From the NCBI RefSeq assembly GCF_020037125.1, contig NZ_JAIQDG010000001.1:310001-374000 (forward strand): a DNA stretch of 64,000 nucleotides, read 5' to 3'. This DNA is from Myxococcus sp. RHSTA-1-4 (GTDB lineage Bacteria; Myxococcota; Myxococcia; Myxococcales; Myxococcaceae). Positions 22,994 to 45,464 of this stretch are shown in pieces (the first letter of the stretch is position 1; each line of letters begins with the position of its first letter). Position numbers and translations under genes: made by a program. The notes below the pieces were generated by a model that ran no database searches, was not told where the DNA came from, and was given only the letters and a program-made list of their open reading frames with translations.

Positions 22994-23017
22994 CGCCCGT
23001 GCCTCAGGGCACGGGCG
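22994..23017. terminator. Bidirectional hairpin at a convergent junction
   Basis: Perfect 10-bp arms CGCCCGTGCC (22994-23003) and GGCACGGGCG (23008-23017) with loop TCAG. The loop holds the stop codon (TCA on this strand) of the leftward Flp-like gene, and the hairpin starts 15 nt after the stop of the rightward gene. No T tract. Confidence 0.6.
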
Positions 23018-23180
23018 ACTGGATGATGTAGTAGATGGAGCTGAAGTACCGGTGCAGCCCGTTCAGGAGCTGCACCAGGAACGGCCAGCCCAGCACGGTG
23101 AAGCCGAGCAGCGCCGCGGTGACGACGGAGTACTCCACCATGGACTGCCCTCGGGAGCGCTGACGGAGCCCTGCCTTCAT
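23004..23180 (-). CDS. Flp-type prepilin-like small protein
   Basis: 58 aa. A basic leader ending RQRSRG is followed by QSMVEY, which matches the Flp/Tad prepilin processing motif G/xxxxEY (Glu at +5, Tyr at +6), and then a 20-residue hydrophobic helix (SVVTAALLGFTVLGWPFLV). Mature length would be about 47 residues, as in Flp pilins. It is the last gene of a six-gene leftward operon, and its ATG overlaps the preceding stop by 4 nt. The short C-terminus is rich in Tyr/Ile/Ser. No prepilin peptidase gene is nearby. Confidence 0.8.
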   Translation of the reverse strand: MKAGLRQRSRGQSMVEYSVVTAALLGFTVLGWPFLVQLLNGLHRYFSSIYYIIQSPVP

Positions 23181-23434
23181 TTCGCGCCTCCCCGGGACTC
23201 GGGCGCCGGCCTCGCCGGAGCCGCGCAGGCCTCCATGCACGGCTTCTTCTGGTCGGAGCAGGCCGACTGGCACTTCGCCACGTTGCTGCCCGCGTACTTC
23301 TTGCAGATGGCCTTGCACTGCTTCACGTCATCGTCGCAGTGCTGCTCGCAGGTCTTCCTTCCCGCGGCCACCGACGTGCCGGACAGCAGCAACCCCAGAC
23401 AGGCCACGGCGACGCGCCCCCAAGTCTTCTTCAT
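23177..23434 (-). CDS. Secreted protein with duplicated twin-CX3C motif
   Basis: 85 aa. Signal peptide MKKTWGRVAVACLGLLLSGTSVAAG, then eight cysteines in a strict pattern: C29-x3-C33-x6-C40-x3-C44, ten residues, and C55-x3-C59-x6-C66-x3-C70. Such twin-CX3C helices are usually held together as disulfide-linked helical hairpins. The tail is Pro/Ala-rich. The start is chosen because AGGGG lies 8 nt upstream; a longer form from 23461 would overlap the previous stop by 4 nt and add nine residues. Function is unknown; the operon suggests export with or near a Tad-like pseudopilin complex. Confidence 0.82.
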   Translation of the reverse strand: MKKTWGRVAVACLGLLLSGTSVAAGRKTCEQHCDDDVKQCKAICKKYAGSNVAKCQSACSDQKKPCMEACAAPARPAPESRGGAK

Positions 23435-23457
23435 CGATGCACCCCTACGCGCTTCCA

Positions 23458-24318
23458 TCATGGCGCGGCCCCCCGCTGCAGCAGCGACAACTGCACCTCC
23501 ACCCCAGGCTGGGATGGACGCTCGCGCAGCACCGCCCGGCCCTGCATGACACCCTGGCTCACCTCGAACGAGACGCCCTTCGGCTCCAGCGGCTCCGTCG
23601 CCCCCATCGCCCAGCCCTTCTCACGCAGCACCGCCCGGTAGCGCGCCTCCGCCCCACCCAGCGTTTCCTCCGGCAACTGCCCGGACACCGCGTGGTGCGT
23701 GGCCCCCTCCATCTCGAAGCTCATCGCCCGCAAGTCGGTCAGCTCCCCCGGAAGCGGCACCCACGCGGGCATCTCGATGGCCCGCTCCAGCAGGCCATGC
23801 ACCTGCCCGGCCGACACGAAGACCAGCGTCTCCCCGCCCTGCTCCAGCGCCGACACCAGCCGGACCTCCATCGTCGCGGGGCTCCAGTAGCCCACGTACC
23901 CGCCCTTCTCCCCGTGCACCTGGCGGAGGACGGGCAGCCCCTTCTCCAGCAGCGCCTTCGCGTAGTGCTCCATCACCTGCGCGGGCGTGTCCTTCGTGGA
24001 GAACCACGCCACGGCCATGGGCACGCCGGGCCCCAGGTAGTCCGACGCCAGCACCTCCGGACGGCTCGCTCGCGGGTAGGGCGGGAAGTGCGACAGCGCC
24101 CGCTTCAGCACGGCCTCCTCACCGGGCGTGCGCGCACCCCCACGCGTCGCCCCCGCCTCGCCATGCCCCGGTTGCGCGGGAGGCTCCCACTCCCCGTCCA
24201 CGGGGGCGTTCCGGTACGCGACGCGCTCCCAGGCGAAGCCGATGAGACAGCCCACCACCGCCACGGAGAACAGGAGCGCCGGTACGCGGATGACCGGATG
24301 GGAGGCCGACGCCTTCAA
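23458..24318 (-). CDS. Membrane-anchored protein of the Tad-like operon
   Basis: 286 aa from a TTG start. The TTG overlaps the preceding stop (TTGA) and is preceded by GGAGGAG at good spacing, whereas an ATG start at 24405 would lie inside the upstream gene. One N-terminal membrane helix (ALLFSVAVVGCLIGFAW, about 15-31) is followed by a soluble region in which two similar parts can be seen, about 75-165 and 180-275 (STKDTPAQVMEHYAKALLEK versus GAEARYRAVLREKGWAMG), a pattern often found in proteins that process or guide a substrate outside the membrane. No family was recognised. Confidence 0.8.
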   Translation of the reverse strand: MKASASHPVIRVPALLFSVAVVGCLIGFAWERVAYRNAPVDGEWEPPAQPGHGEAGATRGGARTPGEEAVLKRALSHFPPYPRASRPEVLASDYLGPGVPMAVAWFSTKDTPAQVMEHYAKALLEKGLPVLRQVHGEKGGYVGYWSPATMEVRLVSALEQGGETLVFVSAGQVHGLLERAIEMPAWVPLPGELTDLRAMSFEMEGATHHAVSGQLPEETLGGAEARYRAVLREKGWAMGATEPLEPKGVSFEVSQGVMQGRAVLRERPSQPGVEVQLSLLQRGAAP

Positions 24319-25391
24319 CAGGTCTCCTCCTGGTTGCAGCCCATGTACCAGTTGCCCCGCTGCTGGTAGCTCTCCTTGTTGTTGTCCTGGTCCCAGTCCT
24401 GCCACTCGCTGTTGAAGTAGTTCTGGCTGCTGCCCTGCTGGGTGATGGTCTCCTCCGGAGCCGGCTCACCCTCCAGGTGGGGCTTGATGGCGATGCTGGG
24501 CTTGCGCGGGTCATCCCCCGGCGGCGTGCTGTCGGTGATGGCCAGGCTCGGGGCGAGCAGCTCGTCCTGGATGGCCTCCTGGACGAAGTTGACGGCCTCG
24601 CTCTGCATCTGGGTGAAGCCCGGGTTGTCCTGGTGCTCGTACTGCTGGAGCACGCGGTCATAGAGCTCGCCCTGGGCGGTGCCCGGACGGATGTCGGCGT
24701 GCTCGGTCAGGGCCCACGTGTCGGTGACGATGGAGCTGCGCTCCCAGGGCAGCAGGTAGACGTCACCCGCGACGCCCTTGGCGTCGTCCTCGTACGTGCC
24801 GCCCTGCGCGTTGGCGTGGATGCCCGAGCCCCGGTCCTTCTTGTCCCGGGCCAGGTCCACCTTGGAGAACTGCGCGAAGACCTTGCGCTGCAGCAGGTAG
24901 TTCTGCACGCCCAGGCGCGCCGTGCAGCGGATGAGGCCGCCCTTGCCGAACTCGTCCATATAGGACTGGTGCTGCGACACCCCGAGCTCCCCCACGTCGC
25001 GGCTGAGCGTGCACTGCACCTGCTCGGAGCCGGGGTTGAGCCAGCAGGCATGGGACACCAGCTCGTGGTGGTGGTTCTCGAGCGAGCCACACTCCCCGGC
25101 CTCGCCCTCCTCGTAGCTGTCGATGCCGGACTCGTGGTCACAGTACATCTGCCGCACGTGCCCCTGGACGTTGCCGAAGCCCGCGAAGGCCTCACCCTGC
25201 GGCTGCTTGGCGTAGTCCTGGACGGTGTAGTCCCAGATGGTGGAGAGCGCGGCCTCCTGCGCGTCCAGCACGTGGCGCAGCAGGTCGTCCAGGAAGAGCG
25301 CGTAGAGGAACACGGGGATGAGCACCAGCATGCTCAGGGCCAGCTCCACCGCGGCGGCGCCCCGGGCCGCACGACGTTGCGCGCGCCTCAC
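24315..25391 (-). CDS. TadE/F-like pseudopilin protein
   Basis: 358 aa. The N-terminus MRRAQRRAARG/AAAVEL keeps the TadE/F processing motif (Gly at -1, Glu at +5) before the hydrophobic helix ALSMLVLIPVFLYALFLD. The remaining 300 residues are a large Gln/Asp/Glu-rich exported domain with several Cys (MYCDHES, GECGSL, HACWLNPG, IRCTARL, MGCNQEETC), much longer than ordinary TadE (about 150-200 aa). Both ends overlap neighbours by 4 nt. It likely forms part of a pilus-like or secretion assembly, but the machinery genes are elsewhere. Confidence 0.8.
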   Translation of the reverse strand: MRRAQRRAARGAAAVELALSMLVLIPVFLYALFLDDLLRHVLDAQEAALSTIWDYTVQDYAKQPQGEAFAGFGNVQGHVRQMYCDHESGIDSYEEGEAGECGSLENHHHELVSHACWLNPGSEQVQCTLSRDVGELGVSQHQSYMDEFGKGGLIRCTARLGVQNYLLQRKVFAQFSKVDLARDKKDRGSGIHANAQGGTYEDDAKGVAGDVYLLPWERSSIVTDTWALTEHADIRPGTAQGELYDRVLQQYEHQDNPGFTQMQSEAVNFVQEAIQDELLAPSLAITDSTPPGDDPRKPSIAIKPHLEGEPAPEETITQQGSSQNYFNSEWQDWDQDNNKESYQQRGNWYMGCNQEETC

Positions 25392-26950
25392 AGCGACACC
25401 CCCGGCACCTGGGCCATCTCGGCCGCATCCGAGTTCCCCGCCGCGTCGAGCACCTTCGCGGCCTCATCCGGCTTGAAGGGGTGCAGCTTCGCGCGCCAGT
25501 AGGGGCCGAAGAGGTTGGGTGCCTCCCTCCAGCCGTTGGCCCCGAAGCGGTGGTAGTAGACCATCGCCTTGGACAGGCTCATGCCCTCGGCCGCCGCGAG
25601 CGTGAGCTGGCCCTCTCCCTGCCCCCCGTGCGTCATCCTCACGGTGGCGGAGGAGTTCAGCTCCCAGGGCGCCTTCGAGGTGTCCCCCGCCCGGAGCTGC
25701 CGCGTCAGGTAGCTGTACACGCGCGGCTGGCCCCAGTCGCGCGCGGCGGACGGGTTGGCGCGGAACTTCATGAAGCAGTTGCCGGACTGCGAGCACGCGG
25801 TCAGCGCCCGGGCGTTGACGCCCTCGAACTGGTGCGTGCCGCTGTGCGCGCCGCTGGGCTCGTGGCCACCGCCGTTCTCGTCGCTCCAGACCTTGGACTC
25901 GTAGGACGACAGCATGGCTCCATCCCGCCAGCTGTGAAAGAGCATGCCCTCCTCCCTGGCGGCGACGGTGGTGCCCTCGTTGCCGTCCTGCTCCCCAGGC
26001 CCGTTGACGCTGCCCTCGTCCTGCACCGTCTTCGCGGTGCCCACGTGGCGGAGGACCTGGAAACGGTTCAGGCCACTGCCCGGGATGTCCTCGAACTCCT
26101 GCATGAAATTCGAATGCAGGTAGGACGGAATCTGGAAGGACGGCATCGCGTTGGCGACGTCCCGCGTCGCCGGCCAGCCCGAGCGGCTCGCGTTGGCGAT
26201 TTCGGTCATCACCTTGGCGCGCGCCTTCTCGTCGGAGTTGCCCACGCTGCCCTGGCATTCCAGCCCGTCCACCGCGCAGTTGAACTCGTTCGCGTTGATG
26301 CTGCCCACTTCCTGGGGCAGGTCGCTCGCGCCCGGCGCGTTGTGCTCCACCAGCTGGCCGAGCCCGTGGCTCTTCCCGTCCTTCACCGCCTGGAGCGTCT
26401 TCTCGTGCACCGACTTCTGCGCGGTGTGGATGTTGTCCACCAGCAGGTCCAGGCCCTCCATGGCGGTCCTGAAGCTGCTCTCGGTGCCCTGGGCCTTCTT
26501 CTCGTAGTCCCGCCCCGTCTGGCCGAAATCGCCGGCGATCTGCAGGGCCTCCATGCCGTGGATGCAATGCTGCCAGCACCCGTAGCAGGCGCACTGCGCG
26601 AACTCCTGCGCGGCGATGATGTAGAAGTTCTGCTGCGCGGCGCGCATCATGTCGCCCGTCACGCTGATGGCGGCCATGTACGCGTGCAGGCTGTTCATGG
26701 CCACGTAGGAGCCGGCGATGGCCCGGTTGCTCACCGCGTAGTAGTTGAGCGCGCGCGCCTCCAGCACCGCCATGGAGTAGGCCAGCGCGTCGCTGTGCTG
26801 CTGCAGGCCCATCTTCTGGCGCAGCGCGTGGCTGAGGTTGAAGCTCAGCGTCACCATCAGCGCGAGCACCAGGAAGGACAGGGCGCTCAGCACCATGGCC
26901 TGCCCTCGCCGGGCACGGCTCCTCACTCGTACGAGAACGGGAACACGCAT
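25388..26950 (-). CDS. TadG-like exported protein
   Basis: 520 aa. A basic leader ending RARRG/QAMVLSALSFLVLALMVTLSF places it in the TadG-like group of Tad pseudopilin-related proteins; unlike its neighbours it lacks Glu at +5. The first 110 residues (HSDALAYSMAVLEARALNYYAVSNRAIAG) resemble the helical stem of TadG proteins. A Cys cluster CACYGCWQHC follows at about 138. No von Willebrand MIDAS motif was seen. The ATG at 26950 overlaps the upstream gene by 28 nt; a GTG at 26926 that forms a GTGA overlap is an equally good start. Confidence 0.8.
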   Translation of the reverse strand: MRVPVLVRVRSRARRGQAMVLSALSFLVLALMVTLSFNLSHALRQKMGLQQHSDALAYSMAVLEARALNYYAVSNRAIAGSYVAMNSLHAYMAAISVTGDMMRAAQQNFYIIAAQEFAQCACYGCWQHCIHGMEALQIAGDFGQTGRDYEKKAQGTESSFRTAMEGLDLLVDNIHTAQKSVHEKTLQAVKDGKSHGLGQLVEHNAPGASDLPQEVGSINANEFNCAVDGLECQGSVGNSDEKARAKVMTEIANASRSGWPATRDVANAMPSFQIPSYLHSNFMQEFEDIPGSGLNRFQVLRHVGTAKTVQDEGSVNGPGEQDGNEGTTVAAREEGMLFHSWRDGAMLSSYESKVWSDENGGGHEPSGAHSGTHQFEGVNARALTACSQSGNCFMKFRANPSAARDWGQPRVYSYLTRQLRAGDTSKAPWELNSSATVRMTHGGQGEGQLTLAAAEGMSLSKAMVYYHRFGANGWREAPNLFGPYWRAKLHPFKPDEAAKVLDAAGNSDAAEMAQVPGVSL

Positions 26951-27729
26951 TCGTTCTTCTCGGGCAGGCTGTTGCGGTTCAGATAGAAATTCGACTGCAT
27001 CCGCATGGTGTAGGTGGCGCGGATGGGCATGATGTAGACGCCCTGCGCGGCCGCGCCCTCGTAGGTCCCCTCCGAGGTGCTGGCGCCCGCGAACTTCCGC
27101 TTCGACGTCTTGTTCTGTTCCTCGGCGGTGACCTTGCCCATCATCAGGACGGACGGGATTTCCCGCCCCCGGGCGGACTGGTAGATGACCCAGTCCGCGA
27201 AGGGGATGATCATCCGGTAGTTGAAGGTCACCTGGATGCGCAGCTTGGTGCGCTGGCTCTGACGCCAGCCGTCCGGGCTGGTGTTCTTCGGGTCATCGAA
27301 GTCCAGCTCCGAGGCGTTCGAGCCGATGTCTTCCTTCGTGGGCCCGCAGACGGTGACCTCCGCGTACTTCAGGCCCACGCCCGGCATCTCGTTGCTCTGC
27401 AGCTCGTTCCACTTGGTGGCGAACTCCTGCGCGCTGCCGACGGGCCGGATGTACTCGATGCCGTCCGGGCCTCCCGCCCGGGTGCCCACCATGGGCAGCA
27501 GCACCGCGAGCGCGGCCTTCTCCATCTCCTCGACCTTGGCGTTGTGCAGAGAGCCGGCGCGCACGGCCTTGTAGGCCGCGTACTTCGTCAGCAAGCGCGC
27601 CTGGTGCATCAGCCCGAGCTGCAGGATGCCGAGGATGAGGAACACGAACAGCGGCAGGATGATGGCCGACTCCACCGCCGCCTGTCCGGATTGCGCCCCC
27701 GAGCGCATGTGGCTCCCCAGCCTGTTCAT
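26923..27729 (-). CDS. TadE-like pseudopilin protein
   Basis: 268 aa. MNRLGSHMRSGAQSG/QAAVES gives a TadE-type cleavage site with Glu at +5, followed by the helix AIILPLFVFLILGILQLGLM. The rest is an exported domain with three hydrophilic insertions and the segment YNYRMI-like FNYRMIIPFADWV. It is the first gene of the six-gene overlapping operon that runs to 23004. A structured stretch lies in the 5' region. Confidence 0.83.
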   Translation of the reverse strand: MNRLGSHMRSGAQSGQAAVESAIILPLFVFLILGILQLGLMHQARLLTKYAAYKAVRAGSLHNAKVEEMEKAALAVLLPMVGTRAGGPDGIEYIRPVGSAQEFATKWNELQSNEMPGVGLKYAEVTVCGPTKEDIGSNASELDFDDPKNTSPDGWRQSQRTKLRIQVTFNYRMIIPFADWVIYQSARGREIPSVLMMGKVTAEEQNKTSKRKFAGASTSEGTYEGAAAQGVYIMPIRATYTMRMQSNFYLNRNSLPEKNECVFPFSYE

Positions 27730-37536: not shown

Positions 37537-40500
37537 CTACTTGCAGGCCCGCGCGTCCACGTGGCGGCAGACGTGGACGCTGCGCGGCACCTCCACCCAG
37601 GAGATGTCGGACGCGGGGTTGGAGTTCTCGCGCAGCGTCTCCTGCGTGGGCGAGCTGCCCACGCCCATGTCCAGCGTGGTGTAGCGGATGGCCCCCGTGC
37701 GGGAGAGGGTGATGAGGCTGGCCGGCTCCGGCGGCGGTGACACCACGTCTCGCGACTTGAAGGGCATGTAGCCCACCAGGTTGCCGTGTTCGTCGAAGAG
37801 CTTGAAGCTCTCCGCCTGGTCCGGCCAGCCGGTGATGAAGTCCATCTGCCACGAGCGGCCCACGTCGCCCGCCCCCGCCGCGCGGCAGGTGCCGGGCACG
37901 GACACCGGTGGAGTGAAGGAGGGCCAGAAGACGATGCCGCCGAGGAGGCTGGAGCCCGCGGCCGTCTTCTCGTCCAGGCCGCCGTAGCGAACGAACCAGC
38001 CGGCCCCCGTGGTGGACGCGCGCGGCAGCGAGGCCAGCGCGTCCGGCGTGAGGTAGCTCTGCAACGTCCCATCCGGCAGCCGGCGCGCCCGCAGGAGGTC
38101 CGGCGGCACGGTGACGTCGCGCAGGCCGCAGCCCTGGCCGGTGGGACACGCGTCGTCCGTGTCCGTCCAGCGCAGCGCATCCAGGGCCTGGGCGGACGCG
38201 GCGTCCGAGAAGACGCGCGCGCCGCCGTAGTTGTAGAAGCCCACGTAGGTGTTGCGCGGCACCTGCTCGCGGTCCGCGTTCCCCAGCCGCAGGTCGCTCC
38301 TGCCCCCGGAGGCGAGCCGCCGCGACTCGCAACTCCACCGGCCGCCCACCAGCGTGCACTCGCTCTTCGAGCCCGACGGCACGGTGGCGTTGGGAGGGAA
38401 CAGGTAGCTGCCGGAGCCCAGCGCGGCGCCGCCGCAGTCGATGGACAGCCGCGTCAGCTCCAGCTTCCCGGCGGAGCACACGCTCACCGGCGCGCCCGAG
38501 GCCGTGTCCTCGTTCCGGGTGAGCACGCCGCCGGTGTACTCGAGCGCGTGGGTGCGCGACACGCCGCCCACCGCGCCGGCCAGCGTCAGGGCCACGTCAC
38601 ACCGCATGCGCACGCAGGCCAGCAGGTTGTCCGGGCCGCACGCGTCGCCCTCCGTATCGCGCAGGTGCTGCCGGTCGCCGGTGCCCAGGTACGTGCGCAG
38701 CCAGCCCGTCTCCGGCTGGAGCGTGTTGGAGGCGATGTGGAAGAAGGGCGTCTTCTGGTGGGCGGGCGCGTCCCGCGCGATTTCGAAGGTGCGCGCGCCG
38801 TGCCAGTTGCTCACCGTCCCGCCGGAGGTGTCCCCCGGCTCGAAGAGGCGGAAGGTCCACACCTGCCCGCCCAGGTCGCCCACCACCACCGTGTCGAAGA
38901 AGCCGTCCTGGTCCGCCTTGATGTCGAGCGCCTTGCCCACGTCCACCAGCGCGGGCGCCGCGGCCACCGGCATCATCGGCTCGCCGGTGAAGCTCCACAG
39001 CTTCTGTCCCGTCCACGCGTCCACCACGTACAGGCCGCGCCCGCGCGTGAGGTCGGCGCTGTACCCGCCGTTGAGGAACACGGCCCAGCGCTCCTCCCAG
39101 CCTCGCGACTCACGCTCACTGCGCAGCCGCACCGGGCCGATGGGAGGGGGCTTGGGCGCGAAGTTCATCCACGCCTGCCCCATGCGCGTCGCCTCCGCAT
39201 CACAGGCCTGGGGGAACATCCAGCGGAAGGAGCCGGCCGCCCCGGCCACGTTGCCCAGCATCCCGTACGGGTCCGTCACGTCCAGGGCGCTGTAGCGCTG
39301 GCCTCCGCTCCGCTCGGTGATGACGGCCAGGGTGCGGAACTCCTCCGGCTGCTTCACGCCGTCGGCCCCGCCGCCGAGCCCGTCCACCCAGACGTCGCGC
39401 ACCATGGGAGTGCCGTCCACGAGGTACTCGTGCCCCCGGACGAGCAGCCCCAGCTTCGGCAGCAGGTCCGGCGGGATGAAGGCCCACAGCTCCTGGCCGG
39501 TGCCCAGGTCATAGAGGTCGTCCAGCACGGTGCCGCGCCGGCCCGAGTCGAGGGCACTGCCCGCATGCACCGCGTGCAGCATGCCGCCGTTGGAGCCCAC
39601 CAGCAGGAAGCGGTCCCGCTGTCCCCGCGCCGCGAGGTATTCGCCATAGGCACCGTAGTTCCCCTCCCTCATGCGCAGCGGCGGCTGCATGGGCGTGGCC
39701 CGGTAGCACGGCGTCGCGGACGGGCCGCTCCCGCACACCGGCTCCGACGAGGGAGGTGTGCCCTCCTGGACGTAGTCCGCATAGAGCGTCCGCAGGCACT
39801 GCGGGGCCAGGCCCATATCACACAGGAACGGCTCCGCGGGCGGCTCCACCAGGATGGGCGAGGAGTGGAAGATGTCGCCCAGCTTGCAGGAGCGGCGGCT
39901 GTCCCCGGTGCACGGCCGGTCCTCGTCGCGGTCCTTGTCGCCGTCCGCGTCGAAGACGTCCTGCCCGCGCACGAAGCGGATGACGGCGCGGGCGCACTCG
40001 GCCTCCTCCGCCGCGCCGCCCGTCCACACCCGGTCCAGCCGGGCGAAGACGTCCGGGCAGAAGGTGTCCCCCCCGGCCAGCAGCAGCGGGCGCAGGTCCT
40101 CCGCGTTCTGCTCGTCGAAGGGCACCGGCGGGTTGTCCGCCGCGTCATAGCGGCCATTCCCGTCCCGGTCCTTCAGGGTGAAGATGCAGCGGCCCCCCGT
40201 CTCGCGGATGGGCGTGCCCGGGCTGCCGAGCTGCTCGCACGCAGCGGAGGCGCTGCGGCGGCCGAGCGTCTCGCCCAAATCCCAGAAGGGCACCGCCGGC
40301 GCCCCCCCCTCCAGCCGGCCCTCGGCGTTGCGACGGGCCGTGGCGGCCTTCACCCACTCGCCGGAGACGTTCTCCTCGACGATGTTGTTCGCGGTGAAGG
40401 CAGTGGGCGCCGGCACGCGGCCGGGCCCGGGAGTGAAGCCCGCCGGCCGGTCCAGGTAGAAGGAGTCCTCGCAGTCCCCGTCGTCGTTGAGGTCCAGCGG

Positions 40501-42414
40501 GTCCCCGGCCTCCGTGCGGGCGCGGGCCGCGTCGCAGCCCTGGGAGAACTCGCCATAGAAGTAGAAGCGGTAGAGGTGGCCTTCGTACGGCTGGCCCCTG
40601 CGAGGGATGAAGCGCGGCACGTAGGCGGAGGTCTGCGAGCTGCCGGCCTGCACGCTGGCGACGCTGGCGGAGGAGAAGGAGGTGGCCGTCTCCCGCAGGT
40701 CGCCGATGGCGGTCATCAGCGCATCACGAAGCTGGCCCGGCTCGTCCGCGCGGTAGAACCGGCCGCCGCCCGCGTGCGCCATGCTGCGAAGCATGGGGCT
40801 GTTGTCGCCATAGCCGATGGTGTACGTGCGCACCGACTGCATGCCGTCCAGGTCGCCGCGCAGGTCCGTGTGCGCGAGGAAGAAGGCCACGTCATCCATG
40901 TAGTTGCGGTTGTGGGTGTCACCGCCCTTGGGGCCGCTGGTGTCCTCGTCCAGGCCGTCGCCGTTGGTGTCGATGAAGTAGTCGCACTCCTCCTTCGTGG
41001 CGCCGTACCGGTCGCAGTAGTTCACCCCGCCCGGGTTCCCATCCACGCCCGGGTTGAAGGTGAGAAGCGTGCCGTCCGGGTGCCTCGCGCCCGCCGCCTT
41101 CAGCATCTCCAGCATCTTGAAGACGGGCACGGTGTTGTCGTTGTCCGGCCGGCCGTCGGACAGGACGATGACGGCGCTCGCCTGGCAGGCGACACAAACG
41201 GACCTGTCCTCGCCACCGCCCTCCAGCGGCAGCGGGTATTCGTAGCCGCCGGACAGGTGGGTGAAGTCGTGTTCCTTGCGCGCCCACGCGTTGCCGCGCC
41301 CGTCCGCGTCGTCGCGCGTGCCGTCCGGTCCTCCGGGGTAGCCCTCCGTGGAGCCCAGCGGGTTGGTGAACCAGCCCGCCCACACGTTGTCCCGCTGCTG
41401 CGAGGAGAAGTACGCCCCGAGGCTGTAGAGCGACTCGCCGATGGAGCGCTCACTGTTGATGAACTCCACCTGGTTGACGGCCGTCACCAGCCCGGAGCGC
41501 TGGAGGTCGTCCTCGGAGAAGAGGGGCCACGTCTTGTCGCACGACGGGCGCAGGGGCCGCAGGAGCCAGGCGGGGTCGAAGAGGTCATCGCTGTGGCTGA
41601 AGGTGGCCACGCCCATGCGCAGCTCCGGCACGGTGTTGATGACGTCCTTCAGCACCTTGCGCGCGCTGACGAACTTGGGCGGCCGCACGTTCAGCACGCG
41701 GCCACTGAGCACCCAGCGGCGGCGCCCGCCACCGTCCGTGTCGCCGCGGTACCAGCCCACCGAGCCCAGGCAGGACGCGCAGGCCGCCTGCATCGCCGCG
41801 TCCCGGGGCCAGTAGCGCGCGCACGCATCCTCGGGGCTCGCGCTGCCCTGTGTGCCGCTGAAGTTCCGCAGCACCGTGTAGGCGGTCATCGAGTCGCCCG
41901 CGTTGTCGCTGTTGTCGCGCCGCTGCAGCGGCAGGCGCGTGCCGTAGGACAGGTAGTACTGGTCCGGGTCGAAGAAGCCGCGCCCGGCCCCCAGCGCGGC
42001 GTCCGGGTCGAAGACGCGCGAGCCGTTGAGACGGGGGTTCGCCGACTGCCGGTCGAACCAGGACATGGCGGTGCGCAGCTCCGGGTCCTCGCAGCCGGTG
42101 ACGTCGGGGATGGACTCCGGCTCCGGCAGCGGCGTGTGGAAGTCCTGCATGGAGGCGTTGTTTCCCAGCAGGAAGACGGCGGAGGGCGGAGGTGTCTGCG
42201 CCTCGAAGAACGCCTTGTCCCCGCCGGACGTGAGCTGGAGCATGGCATCTCCCGTCGCCAGCGGGCCGGTGCAGCACGCGGCGCGAGGCGGCGGGTCCAT
42301 GGCCCCGGAGAGGGCGAGCCCGGCGGTGAGGAGGACGGCGGCCCCGGTCAGACTTCCCGCGAGGGCGGCACGGCGGCGGAGGGCAGGACGGAGGAACGTG
42401 GGGGACAGGCGCAT
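37537..42414 (-). CDS. PilY1-like pilus-tip/adhesin protein
   Basis: 1625 aa, longer than Pseudomonas PilY1 (about 1160). A signal peptide (residues about 1-40) precedes a von Willebrand A-like region at about 75-560, with VIVLSDGRPDNDN in its core. The MIDAS motif is degenerate: GNNASM instead of DxSxS. The C-terminal half is the PilY1 beta-propeller (WMFP, LWSFTGEPMMPVAAAPALVD) with possible Ca2+ loops (DRDGNGRYDAAD and DADGDKDRDED). PilY1 primes type IVa pili together with minor pilins. It is the last gene of the minor-pilin operon, 40 nt after pilX. Many Cys suggest disulfides. Confidence 0.92.
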   Translation of the reverse strand: MRLSPTFLRPALRRRAALAGSLTGAAVLLTAGLALSGAMDPPPRAACCTGPLATGDAMLQLTSGGDKAFFEAQTPPPSAVFLLGNNASMQDFHTPLPEPESIPDVTGCEDPELRTAMSWFDRQSANPRLNGSRVFDPDAALGAGRGFFDPDQYYLSYGTRLPLQRRDNSDNAGDSMTAYTVLRNFSGTQGSASPEDACARYWPRDAAMQAACASCLGSVGWYRGDTDGGGRRRWVLSGRVLNVRPPKFVSARKVLKDVINTVPELRMGVATFSHSDDLFDPAWLLRPLRPSCDKTWPLFSEDDLQRSGLVTAVNQVEFINSERSIGESLYSLGAYFSSQQRDNVWAGWFTNPLGSTEGYPGGPDGTRDDADGRGNAWARKEHDFTHLSGGYEYPLPLEGGGEDRSVCVACQASAVIVLSDGRPDNDNTVPVFKMLEMLKAAGARHPDGTLLTFNPGVDGNPGGVNYCDRYGATKEECDYFIDTNGDGLDEDTSGPKGGDTHNRNYMDDVAFFLAHTDLRGDLDGMQSVRTYTIGYGDNSPMLRSMAHAGGGRFYRADEPGQLRDALMTAIGDLRETATSFSSASVASVQAGSSQTSAYVPRFIPRRGQPYEGHLYRFYFYGEFSQGCDAARARTEAGDPLDLNDDGDCEDSFYLDRPAGFTPGPGRVPAPTAFTANNIVEENVSGEWVKAATARRNAEGRLEGGAPAVPFWDLGETLGRRSASAACEQLGSPGTPIRETGGRCIFTLKDRDGNGRYDAADNPPVPFDEQNAEDLRPLLLAGGDTFCPDVFARLDRVWTGGAAEEAECARAVIRFVRGQDVFDADGDKDRDEDRPCTGDSRRSCKLGDIFHSSPILVEPPAEPFLCDMGLAPQCLRTLYADYVQEGTPPSSEPVCGSGPSATPCYRATPMQPPLRMREGNYGAYGEYLAARGQRDRFLLVGSNGGMLHAVHAGSALDSGRRGTVLDDLYDLGTGQELWAFIPPDLLPKLGLLVRGHEYLVDGTPMVRDVWVDGLGGGADGVKQPEEFRTLAVITERSGGQRYSALDVTDPYGMLGNVAGAAGSFRWMFPQACDAEATRMGQAWMNFAPKPPPIGPVRLRSERESRGWEERWAVFLNGGYSADLTRGRGLYVVDAWTGQKLWSFTGEPMMPVAAAPALVDVGKALDIKADQDGFFDTVVVGDLGGQVWTFRLFEPGDTSGGTVSNWHGARTFEIARDAPAHQKTPFFHIASNTLQPETGWLRTYLGTGDRQHLRDTEGDACGPDNLLACVRMRCDVALTLAGAVGGVSRTHALEYTGGVLTRNEDTASGAPVSVCSAGKLELTRLSIDCGGAALGSGSYLFPPNATVPSGSKSECTLVGGRWSCESRRLASGGRSDLRLGNADREQVPRNTYVGFYNYGGARVFSDAASAQALDALRWTDTDDACPTGQGCGLRDVTVPPDLLRARRLPDGTLQSYLTPDALASLPRASTTGAGWFVRYGGLDEKTAAGSSLLGGIVFWPSFTPPVSVPGTCRAAGAGDVGRSWQMDFITGWPDQAESFKLFDEHGNLVGYMPFKSRDVVSPPPEPASLITLSRTGAIRYTTLDMGVGSSPTQETLRENSNPASDISWVEVPRSVHVCRHVDARACK

Positions 42415-42454
42415 GGGGAGGCTCCTGCGTGGGGAAGGGATGGGGTGGCCGGGG

Positions 42455-42976
42455 CTACAGGCCGAAGCGGACGGTGAACTCGACCTCGCTCTGCGCGCCG
42501 CGGCCGTCCACGCAGTGGACGACGACCTGGTAGGTCTGGCCGCCGAGCCCGGAAGCGGGGGCGATGACGTTGGTGAGGTCTCTCGCGCTGGAGCGGCGGC
42601 CGAGCGTGGCCTGAGGCACCAGCCTCACGCCGCTGATGGCGGGCGGCTCGCCCAGGTGCCCGCTGCGGATGCAGCGCGCGTCATCGGTGGGCGTGGCGCC
42701 GTTGCACCCGGGCAGGCCCGCCAGGTCGAGCCGCTGGTCGGTGGGAGCGAGCTGCGTGGGCGAGCCGCCGATGAGCCGGAAGCGCGACAGGAGGTACTGG
42801 CGGCCGGCGTCGGCGCAGGCCACCAGCTCCTCGCTGGAGCGGAAGCTGCTGGCCGCGCCACGCTCGGAGCCGGAGAAGCCGATGGCGGCCATGGCCAGCA
42901 CCGTCACCACCGCCAGCAGCACCACGACGAGCAGCAGCACCGCGCCCCGGGAGGGGCGCACGGACGTGTTCTTCAT
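42455..42976 (-). CDS. pilX: PilX-like minor pilin
   Basis: 173 aa. Leader PSRG followed by AVLLLVVVLLAVVTVLAMAA (no Glu at +5, as usual in PilX/GspK), then the PilX signature GERGAASS-like SGSERGAASSFRSSEELVAC. It is 3 nt from pilW and 40 nt from pilY1. PilX links the minor-pilin complex to PilY1. Confidence 0.88.
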   Translation of the reverse strand: MKNTSVRPSRGAVLLLVVVLLAVVTVLAMAAIGFSGSERGAASSFRSSEELVACADAGRQYLLSRFRLIGGSPTQLAPTDQRLDLAGLPGCNGATPTDDARCIRSGHLGEPPAISGVRLVPQATLGRRSSARDLTNVIAPASGLGGQTYQVVVHCVDGRGAQSEVEFTVRFGL

Positions 42977-42979
42977 GGT

Positions 42980-44095
42980 TCAGCCTCCAGCGCAGAGGAG
43001 CCCGTCGGCGGGCGCGCGGCCCTGACACGCGCCGGGCGTGGTGGTGTCCTGGGAGTAGGCCGGCAGCGGCATCTCCGTGGAGCGGAGGTTCCGGGGCAGG
43101 ACCGTGGTCTCATAGAGGAAGCGCCGGAAGCCGGCCGGCGCGGGCAGCACCGGCTCGCCGGGGAGCGCGGGGAGGGAGGCCTCCATTCCGGCCTCGCGCA
43201 GGACGGAGTCCGCCCGCGTGGCGCGCGCCACCATGCGCAGGCGCACGGCGCGCACGTTGGCCGGGTTGCGGTTGCGGCGCAGGGGGGAGCTGGCCGGCGT
43301 CTCGTACGTGGGCGGCGGGTGGCCCGCTTCCCACGTGGGCACGAAGGCGGTGCCGTCCTCGCGCAGGAAGGTGACACGCAGGGCCTCGATGCCCTCGGCC
43401 ACCGGCTCGCCCACCGCGTCCGGCCGGGTGCCCAGGCCATGCGCGCGGAAGAGGTACGGCCGGTCCGCCGTGGCCGGGTCGCCGTCGTCGTCCACCATCC
43501 GCACGGAGTAGTCGTGCACGTCCACCTTGAAGACGCGCGCGGGCAGGCCCGGGGCCCCGTCGAAACACGGCTCGTCGAACACAGCGCCCAGGTCCGGGAA
43601 GGTGCCCGTGGCGGGGCTCAGCGGCAGCAGCGTGGCGCCCGGAGCCGCGGGCACGTCCTCGGCCAGCCGGCCGTAGCCCCAGCGCATGGCACCGGGGCAG
43701 ACGACCTGGAGCACCTGCCCGCGGCGCAGCGGCACCGGCAGCGACGCCACCCGGAGGCCTCCCGCGGAGGCGCCGTCCTGGAGCACGGCGGCGCTGAACA
43801 TCAAATCCCGCGAGCGCACCACCAGCCGGTCCGACGCGTTGGGCCCCGTACCCTCCCAGCCCGCCGGCAGGCCGAAGGCATGCTCGGGCTCCAGGCCGTA
43901 GCCCGCCATGCGGAGCTGCCGCGTCAGGTCATGCAGCGCCTGGCGCATTCCGGCCTGCCCACCGCGGATGCCCTCCTGCGTATAGACGCCGCGGGTGAAG
44001 GCGATGAAGGCCGCGGCCACCGCCGTCACGGTGAGCATGGCCACCGCGGTGCCCATCAACATCTCAATCAACGTGAAGCCCCGGCGCGAGCGCAT
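42980..44095 (-). CDS. pilW: PilW-like minor pilin
   Basis: 371 aa. Type IV prepilin cleavage site MRSRRG/FTLIEM, then a hydrophobic helix (TAVAMLTVTAVAAAFIAF) and a PilW region (MRQALHDLTRQLRMAGYG). A DDDGDPATADRP loop may bind Ca2+. It overlaps the pilV stop by 1 nt. It is longer than typical PilW and ends with a Cys-containing tail. Confidence 0.9.
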   Translation of the reverse strand: MRSRRGFTLIEMLMGTAVAMLTVTAVAAAFIAFTRGVYTQEGIRGGQAGMRQALHDLTRQLRMAGYGLEPEHAFGLPAGWEGTGPNASDRLVVRSRDLMFSAAVLQDGASAGGLRVASLPVPLRRGQVLQVVCPGAMRWGYGRLAEDVPAAPGATLLPLSPATGTFPDLGAVFDEPCFDGAPGLPARVFKVDVHDYSVRMVDDDGDPATADRPYLFRAHGLGTRPDAVGEPVAEGIEALRVTFLREDGTAFVPTWEAGHPPPTYETPASSPLRRNRNPANVRAVRLRMVARATRADSVLREAGMEASLPALPGEPVLPAPAGFRRFLYETTVLPRNLRSTEMPLPAYSQDTTTPGACQGRAPADGLLCAGG

Positions 44096-44700
44096 CACCG
44101 GCCCCCCCCGATTCCCGTGAGCGCCACCGGGTTGAACTTGACGGCCTGGCTGGTGATGCGGCGGACCGTCGCGCCCTCGGGCCACGTCACCAGCACCCAG
44201 ACGACCTTGCGCGCGCCGGAGTGCGCCAGCCCCGGGGGCACCGGCCGGCCATCCGCGTCCACCTCCTGGACGATGAAGTAGCGCCGGTAGCGGTCCCACG
44301 CGCCGTCGCCCACGGGGAAGTCCGCTTCCGTCAGGCCCGCCCAGGGACGCGAGCGGAGCTGCGTCTCGCCATGGAGGCAGGCGACGAAGGCGGCGTGGCC
44401 GGGCGCGTTCGGGTCCAGCAGCACGCCGGCCGCGTCCGTGGGGTCCTCCGCGCACGGGGAGCCGGAGGGCACCAGCCGCGCGTCGTCGTACGCCCACAAC
44501 TGCACCTGCGCCACCAGGTCCGTGGCCACGGCGACGGCGTGCACGTGGCGGCGGGCGCTGGCGGTGGCGGTGCGCGCCTGGATGATGGCGCCGAGCAGGC
44601 CCGTCATGCCGAGAAGGAAGACGATGGAGGCGACCATCGCCTCGATGAGCGTGAAGCCGGCGGCGCGCCGGCGGGAGTGCATTCGGGACATGACGTTCAC
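44095..44700 (-). CDS. pilV: PilV-like minor pilin
   Basis: 201 aa. Prepilin site RRRAAG/FTLIEAMVASIVFLLGM, then a PilV-like N-terminal region (LLGAIIQARTATASARR). It overlaps the fimU-like gene by 4 nt. It belongs to the minor-pilin initiation complex. An alternative start at the third or seventh Met is possible. Confidence 0.9.
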   Translation of the reverse strand: MNVMSRMHSRRRAAGFTLIEAMVASIVFLLGMTGLLGAIIQARTATASARRHVHAVAVATDLVAQVQLWAYDDARLVPSGSPCAEDPTDAAGVLLDPNAPGHAAFVACLHGETQLRSRPWAGLTEADFPVGDGAWDRYRRYFIVQEVDADGRPVPPGLAHSGARKVVWVLVTWPEGATVRRITSQAVKFNPVALTGIGGGR

Positions 44701-45464
44701 GGGTCGCGGGAGAAGGAGCGGAAGAGGCCGGTGTCCAGCAGCACGAGGGCGCGCACGTCGGCGTCGGCCTCATGCCCGCCGAAGACGATGGAGCCCGCGC
44801 CGCGCGGGTCCTCCCGGCCCTCGGCGTCGAGGAGCGCCACGCGCCCGTCCGGCTCGAAGAGGATGGCGCCACGCACCGTGCCCCCATCCGACGAGCAGAA
44901 GGTGCAGGGCCGGTTGTCGGGCACCTGGCAGAAGGGAGGCGGGAAGGACCAGGAGCCATCCATCGTCCCCGAGGACAGCTCCACCGAGGGCGCGCGCGGG
45001 TCGGCACAGGCCGGCTGGATGGGAGGGTTCGCCAGCGAGCGGAAGCCCGAGGGCGCCAGGCGCACGGCGTCTCCGAAGAGCCCCATGCCCAGCACCTGGA
45101 ACCCGGAGCCGGACGGCGCCGGCAGCGGCGGCTGAAGCTCGTCCGGCCCGCTCCAGCCCGGCCGCGCCGCCATGCTCTCATCCAGCAGGAACCACGGGTC
45201 CACCACCGTCCAGTAGCGGATGCGCGCGTCCGGCCTCGCGGAGCCCTCGGCGGTGTCGATGAGCACCGCCGTGCGGACACCGCGCCCCAGGCTGTGAGCG
45301 CGCGCGGCGGACAGCGCCGCGTTCAGCTCCAACACCCCGCTGGACATCCGCGCCCGCGCGGGCAGCACGCCCAGCGCCATGACGGACAGGGTGAGAAGGA
45401 TGGAGAGGATGGCGAGGACGACCACCACCTCGATGAGCGTGAAACCCCCTCGGTGACTTCGCAT
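44697..45464 (-). CDS. fimU: FimU/GspH-like minor pilin
   Basis: 255 aa from the ATG at 45464. Prepilin site MRSHRG/GFTLIEVVVVLAILSILLTL, a GspH/FimT-like domain and four Cys near residues 150-195 (PACADPRAP, PPFCQVPDN, CTFCSSDGG). It is the first gene of the minor-pilin operon. The frame is open to 45569, but the prepilin leader fixes the start. Confidence 0.9.
   Translation of the reverse strand: MRSHRGGFTLIEVVVVLAILSILLTLSVMALGVLPARARMSSGVLELNAALSAARAHSLGRGVRTAVLIDTAEGSARPDARIRYWTVVDPWFLLDESMAARPGWSGPDELQPPLPAPSGSGFQVLGMGLFGDAVRLAPSGFRSLANPPIQPACADPRAPSVELSSGTMDGSWSFPPPFCQVPDNRPCTFCSSDGGTVRGAILFEPDGRVALLDAEGREDPRGAGSIVFGGHEADADVRALVLLDTGLFRSFSRDP

What the first reader, a model, noticed from the sequence alone, without database searches (positions are those of the whole stretch)
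23004..27729. Six-gene overlapping operon of Tad-like proteins without Tad machinery
Every junction overlaps or nearly overlaps (27729 to 23004 on one strand). Three proteins carry prepilin-type leaders followed by Q/A-x-x-V sequences (RSG/QAAVES, RRG/QAMVL, ARG/AAAVEL), the last is a Flp-type G/QSMVEY protein, and between them are a membrane-anchored protein and a secreted Cys-rich protein. No motor ATPase (TadA), platform (TadB/C), secretin (RcpA) or peptidase gene is in the window. The large Gln/Asp-rich exported domains are unlike ordinary TadE/G. It may be a separate, remotely powered pilus-like or secretion device.
Basis: partly seen in the sequence, partly recalled or inferred. Interest (0 to 1): 0.72.

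Follow-up and report, generated by a model that had tools for sequence, protein, structure and literature searches.

The report
Spare tip for a predation pilus
These six genes encode one of several exchangeable tips for the known killing pilus with which myxobacteria attack prey bacteria; the pilus motor sits elsewhere in the genome, and two small helper genes in the set appear little described.

Summary
In detail: six tightly packed minus-strand genes (27729 to 23004), four with prepilin-type leaders, and no Tad ATPase or platform gene on the contig. It is the counterpart of the tip3 cluster of the Myxococcus xanthus Kil system (PMC12075869, 2025), a Tad-like predation pilus with interchangeable minor-pilin tips. 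Order: kilM3-kilN3-kilL3-accessory-Cys-rich-kilO. The machine is unlinked: FHA-ATPase, secretin and peptidase on contig C79; CpaB, platform proteins, a KilK-like pilin and a tip4-type cluster on C134; a major-pilin candidate on C41; two more tip clusters on C40 and C45. So 'remotely powered' is right, 'separate device' is not. Little-described parts: (1) a membrane-anchored, probably periplasmic protein with two repeats, two genes after kilN in 14 of 14 loci (12 genomes of the phylum) where it could be modelled, detectable in all four tip clusters here (weakly on C40 and C45), without a Pfam family; one repeat resembles DcrB and SciW in fold; (2) a secreted Cys-hairpin protein, absent from the 15 M. 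xanthus-group loci assessed. I propose that (1) is a tip-assembly chaperone. The tip system is known; I found neither helper named in the text I could read.

The parts
26923..27729 (-). kilM3: TadE-like minor prepilin, leader SG/QAAVE, 268 aa
   Evidence: Pfam TadE 4.1e-12; 65% identical to the M. xanthus AM003 protein in the same position
25388..26950 (-). kilN3: TadG-like large tip pilin, leader RG/QAMVL without Glu+5, 520 aa
   Evidence: Pfam Tad E=0.003, below cut-off; alignment A2; KilN-type matches in 91 of 96 family genomes; AF2 monomer model poor, pLDDT 49
24315..25391 (-). kilL3: minor prepilin, leader RG/AAAVE, 358 aa, GTG start
   Evidence: no Pfam match; leader found after 60 of 60 KilN-type genes
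23458..24318 (-). accessory protein: N-terminal membrane anchor plus two alpha/beta repeats, probably periplasmic, 286 aa, TTG start
   Evidence: no Pfam or NCBIfam match (tested as the 315-aa open frame); alignment A1; AF2 model; fold comparison; distribution and adjacency
23177..23434 (-). small secreted Cys-rich protein, Cys spacing 3-6-3-10-3-6-3 after the signal region; alternative start 23461
23004..23180 (-). kilO: Flp-type adapter prepilin, MKAGLRQRSRG/QSMVEY, 58 aa
   Evidence: M. xanthus AM003 counterpart 59 aa, Myxococcus sp. CA023 59 aa; the paper's KilO (mxan_1150) is 59 aa

Best explanation
The operon is the Tip3 module of the Kil system. KilM3, KilN3 and KilL3 are minor prepilins that are cleaved, assemble through their N-terminal helices into a heterotrimer and sit at the end of a pilus made of the major pilin KilP; KilO joins the tip to the filament. 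The pilus is extended by the single Kil machine encoded elsewhere. On contact with prey the exposed KilN/KilL domains help to recognise prey and, with the needleless T3SS, to kill and lyse it. Shown here: gene content, leaders, orthology to the M. xanthus locus, presence of the core machine genes and three further tip clusters in the same genome. Taken from the published M. xanthus work: assembly, priming and killing. Inferred: that this organism uses it the same way; and that the anchored two-repeat protein is a periplasmic assembly factor or chaperone for the tip pilins, helped in most genera by the Cys-hairpin protein.
For: Paper: four kilLMN tip clusters, with KilO (mxan_1150, 59 aa) in the tip3 cluster. 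M. xanthus AM003 (L047) has the same genes, save the Cys-rich one, between the same neighbours, KilM/N/L 65/64/55% identical, and a 59-aa Flp there. In single-contig genome G077 tip3 lies at 1.41 Mb and the tip4-type cluster at 5.80 Mb with exactly two genes between the KilK-like and KilL genes, as mxan_4655 and 4658 require. Own genome: FHA-T2SSE ATPase, secretin with T2SS-T3SS_pil_N domain, short A24 peptidase (L038), RcpC/CpaB and T2SSF (L030), a second T2SSF there, an 84-aa Flp as KilP candidate, two FHIPEP genes (that one belongs to a needleless T3SS was not tested). Against L050, KilN/L/accessory are 68-73% and KilM 79% identical while ten flanking genes are 80-97% and KilO 87%, as expected of an exposed tip with a buried adapter.
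Against: The DK1622 locus tags and the paper's supplementary alignments could not be read, so 'tip3' rests on synteny, on the Flp inside the cluster and on its 59 aa. The KilN3 model is too poor to test the tip fold. KilP was assigned only by a sub-cut-off Flp match. The divergence contrast is not clean everywhere: against L043 KilM3 (75%) falls within the range of the flanking genes, whose slowest reach 71-79%. No expression or function data for this organism.
Confidence: 0.93

Rival explanations
1. A separate Tad-like secretion or adhesion device with its own dedicated motor.
For: No ATPase or platform gene lies on its contig; another ATPase gene that looks CpaF-like exists on C40 (L037).
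Against: Of six T2SSF matches in the genome, the only two in separate single-domain genes are on C134 beside the tip4-type and KilK-like genes; the operon carries an Flp adapter and matches a published Kil tip.
Confidence: 0.04
2. The accessory protein is not a chaperone but a structural part of the tip or pilus base (for example a periplasmic collar), or a link to the needleless T3SS.
For: Two genomes of one genus (G040, G042) carry a solitary ORF joining a KilN-like N-terminus to the accessory domains, which suggests close association; it lies beside tip pilins in nearly every match.
Against: By eye, some versions have a cleavable-looking signal peptide and others an anchor, so no common fixed site is evident; the fused ORFs lack the prepilin motif and may be relics of a deletion; five tandem second tip3 copies lack the gene, so it need not be one per tip.
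Confidence: 0.4
3. The operon is a decaying paralogue without function.
For: KilN3, KilL3 and the accessory protein diverge faster than neighbours.
Against: All six frames are intact, overlaps and leaders are kept, and KilN-type genes of this kind are retained across the family.
Confidence: 0.02

Closest known systems
Kil-system Tip3 cluster of Myxococcus xanthus (kilLMN3 plus KilO, mxan_1150; PMC12075869)
   Same: pilin gene set and order, Flp adapter in the cluster, synteny with M. xanthus AM003, unlinked Kil machine
   Different: this genome adds a secreted Cys-rich gene, absent from the M. xanthus-group loci assessed; pilins 55-65% identical to AM003
Canonical Tad locus (TadE/TadF/TadG minor pilins; recalled: Caulobacter cpa, Aggregatibacter flp-tad)
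   Same: TadE-like and weakly Tad/TadG-like prepilins, Flp with G/xxxxE
   Different: ATPase and platform genes are not in the locus; I know of no accessory or Cys-rich counterparts in Tad loci (recalled, not searched)
DcrB / SciW / PA1624 (Mog1/PsbP-like fold; fold name and SciW's role as an Eag chaperone are recalled)
   Same: second repeat of the accessory protein aligns at Z 8.7-9.9
   Different: no sequence family match; tandem repeats with a membrane anchor; periplasmic side inferred

Membership tests
Kil Tip complex (Tip3) | three adjacent TadE/F/G-like minor prepilin genes with prepilin cleavage motifs | tested here: met
   only KilM passes a Pfam cut-off
Kil Tip complex (Tip3) | Flp adapter of about 59 aa with G/xxxxE inside the cluster | tested here: met
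   58 aa here, 59 aa in M. xanthus AM003
Kil Tip complex (Tip3) | synteny and orthology with the M. xanthus locus | tested here: met
   L047, AM003; identity with DK1622 tags by inference only
Kil Tip complex (Tip3) | pilin-like folds forming a heterotrimeric spearhead | tested here: inconclusive
   KilN3 monomer pLDDT 49; complex not modelled
Kil Tip complex (Tip3) | Kil core machine in the same genome (FHA-ATPase, secretin, CpaB, two platform proteins, short peptidase) | tested here: met
Kil Tip complex (Tip3) | needed for pilus priming and prey killing | not testable with these tools
   published for M. xanthus
Canonical Tad locus | ATPase and platform genes linked to the pilins | tested here: not met
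   none on C46; the secretin found lies on C79
Mog1/PsbP-like (DcrB, SciW) fold for the accessory protein | same fold as solved members | tested here: inconclusive
   Z 8.7-9.9 over 87-104 residues of the second repeat, 9-14% identity; Foldseek itself gave no believable match

The most novel reading that the evidence does not exclude
Tad/Kil tips in Myxococcota are built with a dedicated periplasmic chaperone: the tandem-repeat accessory protein encoded beside kilL, of a fold like that of the T6SS Eag chaperone SciW, which holds tip pilins by their N-terminal helices until the Flp adapter and the Kil platform take them; a Cys-stapled hairpin protein assists in most genera and was lost in the M. 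xanthus group. One chaperone can serve two tips, since tandem second tip3 copies lack it.
Probability: 0.35. Interest if true: 0.55.

Novelty: new member of a known kind. Interest (0 to 1): 0.38.

Why it matters
It places an orphan-looking operon in a published predation weapon and indicates that the conserved genetic unit of a Kil tip is larger than three pilins and an adapter. If the accessory protein is a tip-loading chaperone, it would offer a handle on a question that work leaves open: how the machine selects and mounts one of several tips. The Cys-hairpin gene, absent from the M. xanthus locus read here, could be overlooked in the model species.

Tried and rejected
Separate pilus or secretion device: disfavoured, because the genome's only single-domain platform pair belongs to the Kil locus. 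Fold of KilN3: model too poor, not searched. Foldseek of the accessory model against PDB: the only match under 0.001 (a dehydratase-cyclase, E 9e-4) has TM 0.18 and rmsd 14 and is not believed; START, PRELID and appendage domains at Z 5-7 are taken as a common arrangement. Leader patterns: my first were too narrow (KilM 52, KilN 54, KilL 36 of 59); the wider ones, written after seeing those misses, gave 58, 58 and 59 of 59. In some searches I had dropped L054 as a duplicate without evidence; with it back the counts are 59, 59 and 60 of 60. Flp pattern: it missed eight loci; two were recovered and the other six, all of one genus, (motif GQAMSEY). Cys-rich count: a second scan with other rules also gave 33 present but not the same loci; it missed L052, L063 and L064, whose proteins I had read (and L052), and reported L090, L091 and L102, where only 55-95 nt separate accessory gene and Flp cleavage site, so I keep the first. 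Accessory profile A1 alone found only the tip3 copy in the own genome; the other copies needed a wider profile (C134 1.3e-13, C40 7e-6, C45 6e-4; next unrelated protein 0.22; 631 proteins in all, the 20 training ones included). In the phylum search only the C46 and C134 copies passed 1e-5 in the own genome, with 12 candidates scored, so C40 and C45 are the weaker claims. On C45 the Cys-rich gene stands between kilL and the accessory gene. My Flp pattern found none in the C40 and C45 stretches. Numbering of those two tips was not possible from the text held.

Full report
Observation. The window lies in an 11.24-Mb genome in 134 contigs. The six ORFs are there, at the stated coordinates, with overlaps of 28, 4 and 4 nt, a 23-nt gap (or a 4-nt overlap with an alternative start), and a 4-nt overlap. 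The four leaders are as described. Pfam supports TadE for the first protein and only weakly Tad for the second; the other four have no family match.

Identity. Of PMC12075869 I read sections 6, 8, 9, 11-17, 19 and 26 and searched passages; figures and supplements were not seen. It describes the Kil pilus of M. xanthus: major pilin KilP, four interchangeable tips each made of KilL, KilM and KilN, and two Flp adapters, KilK and KilO; KilO (mxan_1150, 59 aa) lies in the tip3 cluster and works only with Tip3. Of the eLife 2021 paper (PMC8460266) I saw the abstract, the outline and found passages. A scan of named genomes with the 520-aa protein gave 12 loci, ten of them 62-73% identical over nearly the full length, one of these from M. 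xanthus AM003 with the same pilin order and neighbours; the Flp there is 59 aa. I take this as the tip3 cluster.

Machine. In the same genome the Kil core is unlinked to the operon: contig C79 has an FHA-fused T2SSE ATPase, a secretin and a 178-aa prepilin peptidase; C134 has RcpC/CpaB, two T2SSF genes, FHA-like proteins (by eye), a KilK-like Flp and a tip4-type cluster. C41 has an 84-aa Flp that may be KilP. Two further M-N-L clusters lie on C40 and C45, making four KilN-type matches, the number of tips in M. xanthus.

Evolution. KilN-type proteins match in 91 of 96 family genomes (the profile also picks up other tips). Compared with Pyxidicoccus caerfyrddinensis (L050), KilN, KilL and the accessory protein are 68-73% identical, KilM 79%, the Cys-rich protein 42%, KilO 87%, ten flanking genes 80-97%; against M. 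xanthus AM003 KilM/N/L and accessory are 55-65% and flanking genes 74-95%; against L043 KilM (75%) overlaps the flanking range. In one search, 58 KilN leaders could be read and in all 58 the residue at +5 is Leu or Met, not Glu; tip-most pseudopilins such as GspK also lack Glu5 (recalled). Nine of the 27 genomes labelled own or same genus carry two strong KilN3 matches about 5 kb apart (read from the capped list). Five second copies were examined: none has an accessory gene and all have an Flp; in three (L043, L045, L046) 30 nt separate kilL and the Flp cleavage site, leaving no room for a Cys-rich gene; in the other two this was not tested.

Accessory protein. A profile of the Tip3 version matches in 80 of 96 family genomes. 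Of its 95 matches, 92 lie within 5 kb of a KilN match on the same strand, 91 of them downstream; the three others are two ORFs that carry both domains and one near a contig end (the KilN list used was most of what displayed, itself a capped list). A wider profile, 12 candidates scored per genome, matches in 130 of 195 genomes of the phylum, the family included. Sixteen stretches were then fetched, all chosen by accessory matches, 15 of them from genomes outside the family; 14 stretches from 12 genomes gave an accessory gene model, and in 14 of 14 the order was KilN, one gene, accessory; in two (L126, L136) no model was called and they were dropped. By gene order the tip4 version would be mxan_4657 and the tip3 version mxan_1149; a search of the held library for six such tags found only mxan_1150, in PMC12075869. 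The AF2 model has mean pLDDT 70 (block means 64-93 over residues 61-280, low before that) and two beta-alpha-beta repeats behind an N-terminal helix. The second repeat aligns best with PA1624 (Z 9.9), DcrB (9.5) and SciW (8.7-9.2); START-like domains follow at 6.9 and below. The tool warns that unrelated models often reach 7 to 8, so this is suggestive only. One SciW entry is a complex with the Rhs1 transmembrane domain; that SciW is a chaperone for such segments is recalled, and is the basis of my proposal.

Cys-rich protein. Its cysteines are spaced as a mirror image (3-6-3-10-3-6-3; relatives 3-10-n-10-3 or 3-6-3-n-3-6-3), which suggests a disulfide-stapled helical hairpin. Of 54 non-duplicate loci with accessory and KilN genes, 33 have it by the scan, 20 do not, and one (L048) is cut off by its contig end. 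Fifteen of the 20 are Myxococcus-group loci (M. xanthus AM003 and G077 among them), the others are from G041, G036, G039, G038 and G049. In the 19 of the 20 measured, only 33-95 nt separate the accessory gene and the Flp cleavage site. It also occurs in other classes (L127, L129, read by eye) and in the C45 tip cluster (L032), so loss in the M. xanthus group is likelier than gain elsewhere.

Mechanism. Shown: gene content, conservation, machine in trans. Published for M. xanthus: priming, prey recognition and killing with the needleless T3SS. Inferred: that it works so here, that KilO is the adapter, that the accessory protein acts in the periplasm as an assembly factor. Neither 'chaperone' nor 'accessory' occurs in the held main text of PMC12075869, and I met no name for the accessory protein in the passages read; the supplements were not available, so I cannot say that it is unreported there. 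Searches for print: (listings).

Verdict. A real and well-conserved feature, already explained in kind by the 2025 work, with two extra conserved components that deserve a test.

Noticed in passing
window 37537-45428, minus strand: A T4a minor pilin cluster (PilW and N_methyl over cut-off, PilX_N below) with a 1568-aa protein weakly like PilY1, below cut-off.
   Followed up: partly
L057:5307-6893 and L058:4550-6022: Solitary ORFs in G042 and G040 join a KilN-like N-terminus without prepilin motif to the accessory protein's repeats.
   Followed up: partly
L043, L045, L046, L070, L072: Tandem second copies of tip3 with kilN, kilL and Flp but no accessory gene.
   Followed up: partly
L042 (BNCN01000002.1): Record titled Comamonas sp. 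KCTC 72670 carries this myxobacterial locus, and its contig length equals that of a contig of G067, placed in the window's genus; the title looks wrong.
   Followed up: partly
L053, L055, L056: A further tip cluster in G077, G054 and G060 with its own Flp-like gene (RGQALAEF in L053); the paper names only KilK and KilO as adapters in M. xanthus.
   Followed up: no
L037:8964-10754 (C40): Another T2SSE ATPase gene that looks CpaF-like, with no pilin seen by eye in the 10 kb listed around it.
   Followed up: no
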